From contig JHUT02000001.1 in NCBI GenBank assembly GCA_000690595.2, positions 62,001 to 126,000 of the forward strand: DNA of 64,000 nt. The letters are read 5' to 3'. Shown here in pieces: positions 8,875-60,387 of the stretch; the stretch's first letter is position 1, and each line of letters opens with the position of its first letter. Source of the DNA: Natrinema mahii. Its GTDB lineage: Archaea > Halobacteriota > Halobacteria > Halobacteriales > Natrialbaceae. The position numbers were made by a program, and so were the translations under genes. The notes beneath the pieces were generated by a model, which ran no database searches, was not told where the DNA came from, and saw nothing but the letters and a program-made list of their open reading frames with translations.

Positions 8875-9624
8875 CTATAGCTGTACTGCGTCTTCGAGTT
8901 CGGTCGCGCGTGTCTCGAGCGTATCAGCCGCTCGAGTCACGAGCTCTTCGATGCTGAAGGAGCCGTCCGTCTCCACGTGGAAGACGAACGCTTCGGGCAC
9001 GTCCTCGACGCGGACTTCCTTGCCCGGGTATCGGTTCGAGAGATCGTGATCGAACTCGCTCGTGGGAACGAGTTCGCCGTCGTCTTCGATGACGCCGCGA
9101 ATGATCCGGCGCTCTTCGTCCTCGAACTCCGGTAGGTCGCCCTCGACCTCCACGCGCTGGAGGTGTCGGTAGCCGACCGCGACCCCGCCCTGGTGTTTGG
9201 CGTGGTCTTTCCCGCGGTCGATGATGGCGTCGGCCTCGGCCTCGAGGCGCTGGCCGTCCTTGAGATCGATGATCGGGACGTTCTCGTCGGCGGGTTGGAC
9301 GAGGTCGTCCTCGGAGACGAGGTCGCCGGAGTAGGCGGTGTCCGGCCCTTCGACGTCGATCGAGAGCGTGACGGTGTCGTCCTCGGCGAACTCGCCGACC
9401 GGCGGCGTCGTCAGCGGGACGAGCCCCATCCGCAGGGCGAGTTGCTCGTCGAACATGACCGACGAGTTCTCGACGAACCGGACGGTATCGATCGCCATCG
9501 TCGGCACGTCGGCGACCATCGCTCGGCGAATGCCGTTTGCGAACCCGGGCGTCACGCCGCGAACGAGGAATCGTGCTTCACGATCCTCGCGTTCGACGAA
9601 CTCGACGTCGTACTCAGCAGTCAT
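8875..9624 (-). CDS. rpoD: DNA-directed RNA polymerase subunit D
   Basis: This 249-residue protein is archaeal RpoD, equivalent to Rpb3 and to half of the bacterial alpha dimer; it starts polymerase assembly with subunits L, N and P. Blocks seen are [48 protein letters not shown], and [20 protein letters not shown]. The cysteine cluster that binds an iron-sulfur centre in some archaeal RpoD proteins is absent, as is usual in haloarchaea. It follows S11 by three bases, in the order S13-S4-S11-RpoD known throughout archaea. Confidence 0.97.
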
Positions 9625-9627
9625 GAT

Positions 9628-10017
9628 CTAGTAGCCGCCCTTGCCTTTCGGAGCGCGCGATCCGTCGTGCGGGATCGGCGTGACGTCCTCGATGCGCCCG
9701 ATCTCGATGCCCGAGCGGGCCAGCGCGCGGATCGTCGCCTGCGCGCCGGGACCGGGGGACTTCTGGAGGTTGCCACCGGGACCACGGACCCGAACGTGCA
9801 GGCCCGTGATGCCCGCGGCCTTGACCTCCTCGGCGACGGACTCGGCCATCTGCATGGCCGCGTACGGCGACGCCTCGTCGCGGTTCTGCTTGACCGCCGT
9901 CCCACCGGAGGACTTGGCGATCGTCTCCGCGCCCGTGAGGTCGGTCACGGTCATGACGGTGTTGTTGAACGATGCGTGTACGTGGGCGATCCCCCATTTG
10001 TCGTCGTCCTGGCTCAT
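9628..10017 (-). CDS. rps11: 30S ribosomal protein S11
   Basis: uS11 (129 residues) forms part of the small-subunit platform. The protein shows [42 protein letters not shown] and [24 protein letters not shown], all characteristic. Its ATG overlaps the S4 stop by four bases, and rpoD follows after three bases, so coupling along the operon is tight. The C-terminus ends [11 protein letters not shown], normal for archaea. Confidence 0.97.
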
Positions 10018-57427: not shown

Positions 57428-57610
57428 TAGCGAAAAGTCAGGTTGTCCGATTCAAGACGGTACAACGGTGCTGCTCCACCAGTAGGAGAGGATGGGTCCT
57501 TGATAAGGAGTGTTGTCGAGTCTGCTTAGGAGGGTGTGATTAGGCTATGGCCGAGCGGTAAGTACAGGTGAACCAGTTATTCTTCGATACAGAGACCCAA
57601 ACCCACCAGC

Positions 57611-57618
57611 TATATAAT
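57611..57618 (+). promoter_or_regulatory. TATA element of the AT-rich lipoprotein gene
   Basis: TATATAAT lies 23-30 bases before ATG 57641, giving a leaderless transcript. Confidence 0.55.
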
Positions 57619-57640
57619 GTCATATCGCAGAAAATAATAC

Positions 57641-58015
57641 ATGAACCGTCGGTTACTACTTGCTACAGTTGGGTCAATGGTTGGAGGTCTTACGGCTGGT
57701 TGTAGTACGCTTTCATCAAATAATTACTCATATGATCTATATAATAATTCAGGAGAGGAACTTTCGTTCAATATTCGGTTAGAAAACACATCATCAGACA
57801 TAATACACAACGAGACCCACCAATTAGAGGGTGGGGTGGGGAAGGAAGGAATAGCAATTGAAGGCGTCCCAGCACGTATAATTGTGGTAATAGATTCTTC
57901 AGAGAGAACTACTGTTCCGTGGCCTGCCTCCAGAACCGAAGAAGGCGAAATAGCCACACATGCTGAGATAGATTATGATATAAGGGGTCAGGAAGAAATC
58001 CAAGTTGTTGGTTAA
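57641..58015 (+). CDS. Lipoprotein of unknown function with atypical base composition
   Basis: The 124-residue protein begins MNRRLLLATVGSMVGGLTAGC, a twin-arginine-like signal with lipobox. The mature part is rich in N, S, E and I (NNYSYDLYNNSGEELSF, NETHQLEGG, IEGVPARIIVVIDS). Codons are AT-rich at third positions, unlike all neighbours, so the gene was probably acquired recently. Its leaderless TATA promoter supports expression. No known domain is recognised; a beta-sandwich like other haloarchaeal lipoproteins is possible. Confidence 0.72.
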   Translation: MNRRLLLATVGSMVGGLTAGCSTLSSNNYSYDLYNNSGEELSFNIRLENTSSDIIHNETHQLEGGVGKEGIAIEGVPARIIVVIDSSERTTVPWPASRTEEGEIATHAEIDYDIRGQEEIQVVG

Positions 58016-58459
58016 TGGAAACTGCAAACAGATAATTGAATTCCTAATGATAGTCCATTCAGTATGCATGTGTAGTTATCAGGGTGTTTGGCTGATCACT
58101 CCGTGAAGAGAAAGTGGTGAAGTGTTCCTCTGATTCAACTGCCTGCGGTCAAACGTCGACAGAATCTGATTCCCTAATATGCACACGAGTTGCCGATCAT
58201 CGTGTGTATTTTTACTAGACTGCCGTCTGGAATTTATCATACCATTGGGTCTGGTGAGCGAATTTATAAGCAAATATTGTTCGGATAATCCGAACGGCCG
58301 TAGAATAGCGTGTCGTGTTCACGGCTGCGTCAATGCCGAAACCGATGCGCAGTGAAACACTGGTTCGATATCGACTGTGAGTAATAGCTTGTCCGGGTGA
58401 CTGAATCTGACGGTGTAATTCACTGATCCGGCGGACTGGCCCCAAGCAGTCGCGTTCAG
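58016..58459. other. Gene-free AT-rich accessory stretch with a 17-bp palindrome
   Basis: No convincing gene is seen in these 444 bases. They contain GTTCGGATAATCCGAAC at 58279-58295, a perfect palindrome with a one-base centre, next to AATTTATAAG (58261-58270) that resembles a TATA element. The composition is well below the GC level of the flanking core genes. It may be debris of a mobile element or a regulated promoter whose gene has been lost. Confidence 0.5.
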
Positions 58460-58747
58460 TTAGCTGTCGTCCAACTCGAGGTCGTCCGCCTCGAGATCGC
58501 CGTCGAGATACTGACGCCCTTTGTCGGTGATTCTGTATGGAGAGCCTTTCCCGGACTCTGTTTTCTCGAGGAGACCCGCATCCGATAACGTAGCCATTCG
58601 GCGCGAAAACGTACTCAGGCTCTTGTCTAACATCCCGAATTCGGTGACCAAATTGTAGTGGACCGCGCCGGGCTTCAGTGCCACCGGTTGGCCGTCGACG
58701 TCTAGATCCTGTAGAAACTCGAGGATAGCATCGTCGACTTCGTTCAT
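58460..58747 (-). CDS. Winged-helix repressor-like protein (PhiH1-repressor type)
   Basis: The protein from ATG 58747 (MNEVDDAILEFLQDLDVDGQ, 95 residues) has the winged helix VHYNLVTEFGMLDKSLSTFSRRMATLSDAGLLEKTESGKGSPYRITDKG in overlapping order, like the haloarchaeal PhiH1 phage repressor family. Such genes are often tied to proviruses or mobile elements. An ATG at 58768 is an alternative. The inverted repeat CGGGGG-CGCATA-CCCCCG (58758-58775) lies over the start and may be an operator or leader hairpin. GATTAAAG at 58792-58799 is a possible TATA element. Confidence 0.78.
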   Translation of the reverse strand: MNEVDDAILEFLQDLDVDGQPVALKPGAVHYNLVTEFGMLDKSLSTFSRRMATLSDAGLLEKTESGKGSPYRITDKGRQYLDGDLEADDLELDDS

Positions 58748-58837
58748 CCACGGTACCCGGGGGCGCATACCCCCGTGTTCTGATGATCGTTCTTTAATCG
58801 CACCGATGAAATTCGCCGTTACAAGTCCTAATTCATT

Positions 58838-58857
58838 TATGCATATTCTATTGCATA
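58838..58857. repeat. TATGCA/TGCATA inverted repeat upstream of the winged-helix gene
   Basis: TATGCA and TGCATA flank eight AT-rich bases. The site lies about 90 bases before the winged-helix start and about 235 before the TnpB-like gene, so it could be a binding site for the repressor-like protein controlling either gene. Confidence 0.4.
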
Positions 58858-58939
58858 GATTTAAATTGTGTGTCGTTGTTCGTGAGAGTAACGGATGGCG
58901 AACGGACCCGCCGCTACGCGGTCGGTAGTTCGTGAGAAC

Positions 58940-58968
58940 GCGGGCCCGGTGTTAGGCCACCGGCCCGC
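58940..58968. other. Strong hairpin in the leader of the TnpB-like gene
   Basis: GCGGGCCCGGTG (58940-58951) can pair with CACCGGCCCGC (58958-58968) with one bulged base and a 6-base loop. It lies about 120 bases before the TnpB-like start within a 340-base gap without another gene (58748-59089). TnpB relatives work with structured RNAs, though these normally come from the 3' side of tnpB. Confidence 0.5.
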
Positions 58969-59089
58969 TGGCCTCCGTAATCATGGGACGGAAGCATGCA
59001 ACCGCACGACACTACAGGGTATAACTTCCCTGATCGATCACCGGAACGAACGACGATCGAAACCGGTCTCCCACGGAGAGGTGATTCTG

Positions 59090-59764
59090 ATGGATGAGAC
59101 AGCGATCGGCGTCGACGTCGGCGAATACAACCTCTACACGGCCTGCCCGGCCGACCTCCCGGACTGGCGGGGCGCGCACGCGGTCTGTGGCGACGACCTC
59201 TGTGGGCTTCTCGACGACCTCCGACTCGAGGTCGCTGCCTTGCTCGCCAGTCCGTACGATCGGGCGACGATCGCCGCCTACGTCCAGCAGCGCCGCGACG
59301 CCATCGTCGCGGAACTCGACGCCGCCGCGCAGACGATCTGTGAGTACGCGACCGCCTACGACGACCCGGTGTTGGTCACCGAAGACAGCCACTACCAGCC
59401 CGACCTCTGGGCGTGGCTCACCGACCCCGACGCACATCGGGGCTCCGCGTGGCTCCTCCCCGCGGCACACCTGCGGCTGCGGGCCGTCGCCGCCGAGTAC
59501 CGACTCCCGGTGACGGCGGTGCCCGAAGCGTACTCCACGCAGGAGTGTCACGCCTGCGGCGTCCTCGGCACTCGAGAACGGAACACGACCGTTCGATGCG
59601 CGAATCCGAACTGCCACGTCGACACCGTGGCCGCGGACTTCAACGCCGCGGCGGTCCTCGCCCGGCGCTACTACCCCGGCCGGTGCTGTGACTACCGACC
59701 GCGTGCGTCACCGCACCCCGACGATCCCCGGGCGCTCGCCGCCGACGGCGGGCGCCCGGACTGA
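59090..59764 (+). CDS. Short TnpB-like protein with RuvC triad and zinc ribbon only
   Basis: From ATG 59090, with ribosome binding site GAGGTGAT at 59078-59085, the 224-residue protein has RuvC-I (AIGVDVGEYNLYTACP, Asp9), RuvC-II (VLVTEDSHYQPDLW, Glu98), a zinc ribbon with CHACG and CANPNC (Cys153, 156, 170, 175), and RuvC-III (TVAADFNAAAVLARRYY, Asp183). The catalytic triad is intact, yet the N-terminal recognition and wedge domains of normal TnpB (about 400 residues) are absent. I recall similar short proteins annotated as transposases in other haloarchaea, so this may be a distinct family. No tnpA is near. Confidence 0.72.
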   Translation: MDETAIGVDVGEYNLYTACPADLPDWRGAHAVCGDDLCGLLDDLRLEVAALLASPYDRATIAAYVQQRRDAIVAELDAAAQTICEYATAYDDPVLVTEDSHYQPDLWAWLTDPDAHRGSAWLLPAAHLRLRAVAAEYRLPVTAVPEAYSTQECHACGVLGTRERNTTVRCANPNCHVDTVAADFNAAAVLARRYYPGRCCDYRPRASPHPDDPRALAADGGRPD

Positions 59765-59853: not shown

Positions 59854-60387
59854 TCACTCGAACTGGGCGGTGTCGCCGCGCCGGTAGCGGTCGACCCGGC
59901 GGTAGCCGTGGACGGTCGCGCCGGGGTCGAGTTCGATCTCGTAGCGGCCGATGATGTCCTGGGTGTCGGGGACGGCTCTGCGTTCGACGACTTCGACGAC
60001 GGCGCGCCAGCCGTCGTCGGTCGGGGTGATCTCGCTGACGCCGTCGAACTCGTGGCCGATGAGTTGGCCGGCGGTCGACTGGACCGTCTCGCGAACCGCG
60101 AGGATGCCCGCGATCTCCTCCTGCTCGACGTCGACCTCCGCCTCGACCTCGTCGGGGTCGGTCATCTCGTCGGCGGTCATGTGGGTCGTCCCGCGGGAGC
60201 GGGGCTCCTCGATTTCCTCGCTCTCGCCCTGTTCCTCCTCCTGACTCGCTTGACTGTCGCTCACTGTTGGATCACTCTCGTCGTGCTGGTAGCAGAAGCC
60301 GTCCTCGCCGGCCGGCCGCGAGCAGCGCTCGCCGTCCTCGGTGCGGGCCTTGCACTGCGCTCGTGATTGCGTGTCGGCTTCGGCCAT
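59854..60387 (-). CDS. gvpO: Gas vesicle protein GvpO with N-terminal zinc-binding-like motif
   Basis: The C-terminal half is GvpO: LIGHEFDGVSEITPTDDGWRAVVEVVERRAVPDTQDIIGRYEIEL in overlapping blocks, ending YRRVDRYRRGDTAQFE. GvpO is needed for gas vesicle formation in haloarchaea. The N-terminal 35 residues contain QCKARTEDGERCSRPAG and DGFCYQH, a C-x8-C-x9-C-x2-H arrangement that looks like a small zinc-binding unit, joined by an acidic linker. The haloarchaeal GvpO proteins I remember lack these cysteines. The gene is last in the leftward gvpA-gvpN-gvpO operon, 39 bases after gvpN. Confidence 0.9.
   Translation of the reverse strand: MAEADTQSRAQCKARTEDGERCSRPAGEDGFCYQHDESDPTVSDSQASQEEEQGESEEIEEPRSRGTTHMTADEMTDPDEVEAEVDVEQEEIAGILAVRETVQSTAGQLIGHEFDGVSEITPTDDGWRAVVEVVERRAVPDTQDIIGRYEIELDPGATVHGYRRVDRYRRGDTAQFE

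What the first reader, a model, noticed from the sequence alone, without database searches (positions are those of the whole stretch)
59090..59764. RuvC-plus-zinc-ribbon mini TnpB with intact catalytic triad and no recognition domain
Asp9, Glu98 and Asp183 and the four zinc cysteines are all present, but the N-terminal guide-RNA and target-recognition domains of TnpB are absent. A good ribosome binding site and complete frame argue against a random fragment. It could be a domesticated nuclease or one that depends on another protein for targeting. The reverse design (dead nuclease, retained RNA binding) is known for TldR proteins.
Basis: partly seen in the sequence, partly recalled or inferred. 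Interest (0 to 1): 0.6.

Follow-up and report, generated by a model that had tools for sequence, protein, structure and literature searches.

The report
Haloarchaeal stand-alone TnpB nuclease half
A salt-loving archaeon carries a short protein that is only the cutting half of the RNA-guided nuclease TnpB; it is not a broken fragment but one of a family with a single origin that kept every cutting residue, lost the RNA- and target-recognition half, and in one branch sits beside CRISPR-like Cas7/Cas5 genes that might steer it.

Summary
Confirmed. The ORF at 59090-59764 (224 aa) is a complete RuvC plus zinc-ribbon module with D9, E98, D183 and C153/C156/C170/C175 intact and nothing of the TnpB N-terminal half. 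It belongs to a real family: 35 close copies in Natrialbaceae (mini1, 57-100% identity) and about 20 distant ones of 197-223 aa in at least four haloarchaeal families (mini2). Rooted among 36 full-length TnpBs, all minis form one clade (100/100), while truly decayed TnpBs scatter inside the full-length clade. Triad and cysteines are invariant in all 48 minis aligned; dN/dS is 0.10-0.43. No TnpB N-terminal remnant lies next to any copy. In 23 of 24 copies an upstream ORF ends exactly 5 nt inside the gene (translational coupling). Neighbours: divergent phage-type wHTH, hairpin leader, small ORFs, then a coiled-coil gene, or gas-vesicle genes in Natrinema. In the main mini2 subclade 9 of 12 copies directly precede the Cas7-like gene of HRAMP, an array-less type III-like system. 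Best reading: a TnpB nuclease half exapted once, with no guide of its own, that relies on partner proteins for targeting. Nuclease activity and partners are inferred; the window member's partner is unknown.

The parts
59090..59764 (+). mini-TnpB gene: stand-alone RuvC plus zinc-ribbon (TNB) protein, 224 aa, no WED/REC half
   Evidence: translation; Pfam PF07282; triad and C4 invariant in family; Cas12f/TnpB fold match
58996..59097 (+). small upstream ORF (33 codons, MQPHDTTGYNFPDRSPERTTIETGLPRRGDSDG*) whose stop lies 5 nt inside the mini-TnpB start
   Evidence: same overlap in 23 of 24 family copies with a nearby ATG
58940..58968 (+). leader hairpin GCGGGCCCGGTG-TTAGGC-CACCGGCCCGC in the 5' region of the transcript
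   Evidence: type 1 leader alignment, 96% of cells paired but few double-sided changes; in the other leader type the same hairpin also precedes operons without the mini gene
58460..58768 (-). divergent small winged-helix regulator (phage-type repressor family), conserved neighbour of the operon
   Evidence: cluster c1 in 24 loci; phrog_2440 transcriptional regulator E 1e-19
59854..60387 (-). gvpO, first gene of the convergent gas-vesicle cluster; stable neighbour in most Natrinema copies
   Evidence: Pfam GvpO E 1.6e-28; cluster c4 in 9 loci
57500..58999 (.). AT-rich stretch (43-54% GC against 67-71% around it) upstream of the gene, as expected for acquired DNA
   Evidence: composition profile

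Best explanation
The gene is a member of a haloarchaeal protein family made of the C-terminal, catalytic half of TnpB alone. Once, within haloarchaeal TnpBs, the N-terminal WED/REC half that binds the guide RNA and reads the target was lost. The remaining RuvC plus zinc-ribbon module was kept under purifying selection and spread as an accessory gene in operons of plasmids and genomic islands behind a divergent phage-type winged-helix regulator. Shown: single origin, invariant triad and zinc site, operon position, start-stop overlap. Inferred: it is a metal-dependent nuclease with no guide RNA of its own, and it cuts where a partner delivers or opens the nucleic acid. In the HRAMP branch the partner would be the Cas7/Cas5-like RAMP complex encoded directly after it. 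For the Natrialbaceae branch, including the window gene, the candidate partners are the operon mates (coiled-coil protein c2 and the small upstream proteins) or an unlinked host factor.
For: One clade of minis rooted with full-length TnpBs (100/100), still one clade after removing long branches (SH-aLRT 99). D9/E98/D183 and the four cysteines invariant in 33 mini1 and 15 mini2 rows; W107 shared by 33/33 mini1 and 13/15 mini2 but D or N in full-length TnpB. dN/dS 0.10-0.43. No N-terminal remnant near minis, remnants near decayed TnpBs. Stop-start overlap at the same position in 23/24 copies. Conserved neighbours c1 (24 loci) and c2 (24 loci). Mini2 directly upstream of, and overlapping, the HRAMP cas7 in 5 of 30 examined HRAMP loci, and adjacent in 9 of 12 copies of that subclade counting decayed cas7 (coordinates; pHG4). 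Cas7-like and Cas5-like identities: Csm3 profile E 2e-4, Cmr3 profile E 3e-7.
Against: No activity data. The window genome and six other Natrinema with mini1 have no RAMP protein, so HRAMP cannot be its partner there. c2 is far commoner than the mini gene (86 of 125 Natrialbaceae genomes), so any dependence would be one-way. Accessory genes in these operons are exchanged freely, so adjacency alone is weak evidence of interaction. The mini2-HRAMP link is a single lineage and may reflect one event plus transfer. Two of 35 mini1 copies are damaged (L066 deletion, L075 frameshift).
Confidence: 0.55

Rival explanations
1. Decayed or chance remnant: the ORF is the 3' part of an IS200/IS605 tnpB that lost its 5' half and happens to stay open.
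For: Truncated TnpBs do exist in related genomes (L103, L109-L112, L137). Long open frames are common in GC-rich DNA.
Against: Minis form their own clade while truncations fall inside full-length TnpB. Triad and zinc site invariant and dN/dS below 0.5. No N-terminal remnant near any mini. Conserved start-stop overlap.
Confidence: 0.03
2. Non-targeted genome-maintenance nuclease: the RuvC plus zinc-ribbon module was exapted as a structure-specific nuclease (for example for branched or replicating plasmid DNA) and needs no targeting partner.
For: RuvC triad intact and fold match. Several copies lie on plasmids or in plasmid-like operons. Weak structural match also to true RuvC resolvase (Foldseek rank 26, E 0.29).
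Against: Absent from most c2 operons, so not needed for maintenance of such elements in general. Adjacent to HRAMP in one branch.
Confidence: 0.22
3. Nuclease-independent regulator or inhibitor: the module binds nucleic acid or TnpB/omegaRNA complexes and acts as repressor or dominant-negative inhibitor of TnpB, in the spirit of TldR but with the opposite half kept.
For: Own genome also has full-length TnpBs. The operon sits next to a phage-type regulator.
Against: All catalytic residues are invariant over deep divergence, which a pure binder would not need. The RNA-binding half is missing.
Confidence: 0.1
4. A guided nuclease after all: the conserved 5' leader hairpin is a guide or scaffold RNA for the mini protein.
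For: Structured leader directly upstream in many copies.
Against: The same kind of leader hairpin precedes c2 operons without the mini gene (L089, L092, L096, L100, L101). Several copies have coding sequence instead (L049, L050, L054, L055). No Rfam match above threshold. Few double-sided changes.
Confidence: 0.06

Closest known systems
TnpB (IS200/IS605 RNA-guided nuclease; Cas12 ancestor)
   Same: RuvC-I, -II, -III residues and C4 zinc ribbon; derived from within haloarchaeal TnpB
   Different: Whole N-terminal WED/REC half absent; no guide RNA found; sits in its own operons
TldR (nuclease-dead TnpB-like RNA-guided repressor; PMC13418256 and own knowledge)
   Same: A TnpB domesticated for another role, associated with mobile elements
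   Different: The reverse design: TldR keeps RNA and target binding and loses the triad; this family keeps the triad and loses the binding half
HRAMP (haloarchaeal RAMP; PMC8730458, PMC12669027; original description by Makarova et al. 2019 not held)
   Same: Array-less Cas7/Cas5-like systems described with varied add-on nucleases, most often HNH and PD-(D/E)xK; a mini2 branch is encoded directly before the cas7
   Different: A TnpB-derived RuvC as the add-on nuclease is not named in the passages read of the two held papers; the window genome has no HRAMP
Cas12f and other type V effectors
   Same: Same RuvC/TNB fold
   Different: No REC/WED half; association with CRISPR arrays not examined

Membership tests
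TnpB (RNA-guided endonuclease) | RuvC D-E-D triad | tested here: met
   invariant in 48 of 48 mini rows
TnpB (RNA-guided endonuclease) | C4 zinc ribbon / TNB | tested here: met
   PF07282 37.1 bits; four Cys invariant
TnpB (RNA-guided endonuclease) | N-terminal WED and REC domains | tested here: not met
   absent from the ORF and not found beside any mini copy
TnpB (RNA-guided endonuclease) | omegaRNA overlapping the 3' end, IS ends, TnpA | not tested
   no transposase gene among the conserved neighbours, but 3' RNA and IS ends were not examined
TnpB (RNA-guided endonuclease) | descent from TnpB | tested here: met
   nested in haloarchaeal TnpB tree
TldR | inactivated RuvC triad | tested here: not met
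   triad intact
TldR | retained RNA-binding N-terminal half | tested here: not met
   half absent
HRAMP component (window copy) | Cas7/Cas5-like RAMP genes in the locus or genome | tested here: not met
   no HRAMP Cas7 hit in G000, no RAMPs Pfam hit
HRAMP component (mini2 subclade) | gene adjacent to Cas7/Cas5-like RAMP genes | tested here: met
   L105/L187, L190, L194, L207, L211 with intact cas7; Csm3 and Cmr3 profile hits
HRAMP component (mini2 subclade) | physical part of the complex | not testable with these tools
   needs co-purification or complex modelling
IS fragment / pseudogene | scattered origin, decayed 5' remnant, relaxed selection | tested here: not met

The most novel reading that the evidence does not exclude
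A class 1 / class 2 hybrid: array-less Cas7/Cas5 RAMP complexes of haloarchaea use a stand-alone TnpB-derived RuvC plus zinc-ribbon protein as their cutting subunit. The Natrialbaceae branch in the window would be the same nuclease module re-paired with a different targeting partner.
Probability: 0.3. Interest if true: 0.85.

Novelty: new variant of a known kind. Interest (0 to 1): 0.62.

Why it matters
Known TnpB domestications such as TldR keep the RNA-guided binding half. A long-lived family that keeps only the nuclease half shows that the RuvC/zinc-ribbon module can live on its own, and offers a natural minimal RuvC protein of about 210 aa for testing what the guide-binding half contributes. 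The HRAMP-linked branch would make an open question testable: which nuclease does the cutting in array-less haloarchaeal RAMP systems.

Tried and rejected
(1) Upstream hairpins as a guide RNA: rejected because leader hairpins occur in c2 operons without the mini gene and are replaced by coding sequence in others. (2) Split TnpB with the N-terminal half encoded nearby: no hit within the fetched flanks apart from one fragment 5 kb away in L054. (3) Functional tie to gas vesicles: only the Natrinema copies lie by gvp genes; the rest do not, so this looks like position, not function. (4) Viral home: no relative in IMG/VR contigs (a pattern-based scan that may miss distant ones); in the phage collection only the 28%-identical TnpB of ISH12. 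(5) HRAMP as partner of the window copy: no RAMP protein in that genome. (6) c2 as an obligate partner: c2 is in 86 of 125 genomes, mostly without the mini gene. (7) Rfam: nothing over threshold. (9) The original HRAMP paper is not in the library, so whether it lists TnpB-like nucleases could not be checked.

Full report
Observation. The ORF at 59090-59764 on the + strand encodes 224 residues. RuvC-I is GVDVGE (D9), RuvC-II is VLVTED (E98), the zinc cysteines are C153, C156, C170 and C175, and RuvC-III is AADFNAA (D183). Pfam sees only the C-terminal TNB domain, NCBIfam the last 60 or so positions of the TnpB model. An AlphaFold2 model from seven sequences is of middling quality (pLDDT 62.7, zinc ribbon unmodelled), but Foldseek puts Cas12f structures first, with TnpB, Cas12g, Cas12p and Fanzor among the next matches.

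A family, not a fragment. In 392 order-level genomes the hits fall into two sets with a clear gap: about 34 hits at 57-100% identity (E below 1e-79), all in the window's own taxonomic family, and then mostly full-length TnpBs at about 30-40%. Thirty-five close copies were fetched with flanks. Below the gap lies a second, more distant set of short proteins (mini2, 197-223 aa, 32-38% identity to the window protein), recognised and by a separate search, in at least four haloarchaeal families (f1, f4, f5, f7).

Tree. On the RuvC plus zinc-ribbon region mini1 is one clade (100/99) and mini2 one clade (98/90), while five truncated TnpBs scatter among the full-length proteins. With 21 further archaeal TnpBs as outgroup, mini1 plus mini2 is a single clade (100/100, stem about 1 change per column) nested beside a common haloarchaeal TnpB subfamily. 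Leaving out the longest branches keeps it (SH-aLRT 99). The tool warns of long branches, so the exact sister group is less sure than the unity of the minis. A shared residue agrees: W107, after RuvC-II, is Trp in 33/33 mini1 and 13/15 mini2 but Asp or Asn in full-length TnpB.

Selection. D9, E98, D183 and the four cysteines are invariant in 33 mini1 and 15 mini2 rows. Pairwise dN/dS is 0.10-0.43. Of the 35 mini1 copies one has an internal deletion (L066) and one a frameshift (L075).

No hidden N-terminal half. The N-terminal halves of 15 sister TnpBs were searched against the mini loci: the only hit is a piece 5 kb away in L054. The same queries find remnants in the loci of four truncated TnpBs, within 180 nt of the frame in three of them. 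So the minis are not decayed copies with a broken front, and the missing half is not encoded next door.

Operon anatomy. Near mini1 lies, divergently, a small winged-helix regulator (cluster c1 in 24 loci; phrog_2440 E 1e-19 for the window's copy), then a leader with a GC-rich hairpin, then one or more small ORFs. In 23 of 24 copies with a nearby ATG, an upstream ORF ends exactly 5 nt inside the mini gene, including the window (uORF 58996-59097). Copies without that ATG have longer in-frame extensions. This pins the start at 59090 and argues for translational coupling. Downstream, 24 loci have c2, a coiled-coil protein with a conserved C-terminal part of about 180 residues and no named family. 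c2 itself is widespread (86 of 125 genomes, up to 12 copies), and its operons often carry other small genes where the mini gene would be. In Natrinema the mini gene instead abuts the gas-vesicle cluster (gvpO, a gvpN-like AAA ATPase, a gas vesicle protein, gvpL/F), a position kept across most species examined; a partial match lies beside the same cluster in Halopiger djelfimassiliensis (L007). One copy on a Natrinema plasmid is fused to a C-terminal extension of about 500 residues (L065/L078).

Leader is not a guide RNA. The hairpin leaders are conserved, but leaders with the same hairpin precede c2 operons without any mini gene (L089, L092, L096, L100, L101). There are few double-sided base changes and Rfam has no match above threshold.

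The HRAMP branch. In L105 the mini2 gene is followed, with overlapping ORFs, by a 287-aa RAMP (Csm3 profile 2e-4; weak Pfam RAMPs), a 260-aa protein with no match and a 328-aa Cmr3-like RAMP (3e-7). That fits HRAMP, array-less type III-derived systems of haloarchaea with Cas5 and Cas7 homologues, an uncharacterised protein and varied nucleases, most often HNH and PD-(D/E)xK (PMC8730458; PMC12669027). A relative of this cas7 occurs in 95 of 392 genomes. Of 30 such loci examined, five have mini2 directly upstream with overlapping ORFs (L187, L190, L194, L207, L211). Seen from the other side, 9 of the 12 copies of that mini2 subclade lie directly before a cas7 or its remnant (coordinates; pHG4), while none of the eight more distant mini2 copies does. 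The remaining mini2 copies sit in multi-gene plasmid-like operons with overlapping small genes, for example on pHG4 of Haloferax gibbonsii. The window genome and six other Natrinema have no RAMP protein.

Mechanism. What follows is inference. In TnpB and Cas12f the RuvC site cuts strands that the guide-binding half has opened, and the TNB domain helps to hold the strand (established knowledge of these enzymes). A protein made of RuvC plus TNB alone should be a small metal-dependent nuclease without sequence choice. Its upkeep over deep divergence with every catalytic residue argues that it cuts; its lack of the recognition half argues that something else chooses the site. For the HRAMP branch the Cas7/Cas5 complex is the natural candidate. 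For the window branch no partner is named with confidence; c2 and the small coupled proteins are candidates. A non-targeted maintenance nuclease is the main rival.

Verdict. It is best filed as a new variant of a known kind: TnpB-derived, but not a TnpB by the defining feature of the guide-binding half. Interest 0.62; it would rise to about 0.85 if the RAMP partnership were shown.

Noticed in passing
L065 (Natrinema sp. DC36 plasmid unnamed5, L078:6001-8208): A mini-TnpB fused in frame to a C-terminal extension of about 500 residues with further cysteine pairs, in a long plasmid or provirus-like operon near a tyrosine recombinase.
   Followed up: partly
cluster c2, e.g. L005 about 9076-9972; also G000:C1:192706-193239: An uncharacterised coiled-coil protein with a very conserved C-terminal part of about 180 residues, in 86 of 125 Natrialbaceae genomes and up to 12 copies per genome, ending operons of variable small genes behind a divergent small wHTH regulator.
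   Followed up: partly
L187-L216 compared with L084-L102: HRAMP operons and c2 operons carry similar small accessory genes and wHTH regulators, as if both were terminal modules of one exchangeable operon type.
   Followed up: partly
L067, L068, L070, L063, L071 upstream of the mini gene: Palindromes of changing sequence (TACTGACGAGTCGTCAGTA, CGCTGTGAATTCCACAGTA and others) lie just before a TATA-like stretch, possible operators of the divergent wHTH regulator.
   Followed up: no
window 57500-58999: AT-rich island (43-54% GC) holding a small lipoprotein-like ORF (57641-58015) and the wHTH gene, in a 67-71% GC neighbourhood.
   Followed up: no
L103, L109-L112, L137: Several truncated TnpBs in other haloarchaea that sit inside the full-length clade; useful as a contrast set for the minis.
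   Followed up: yes
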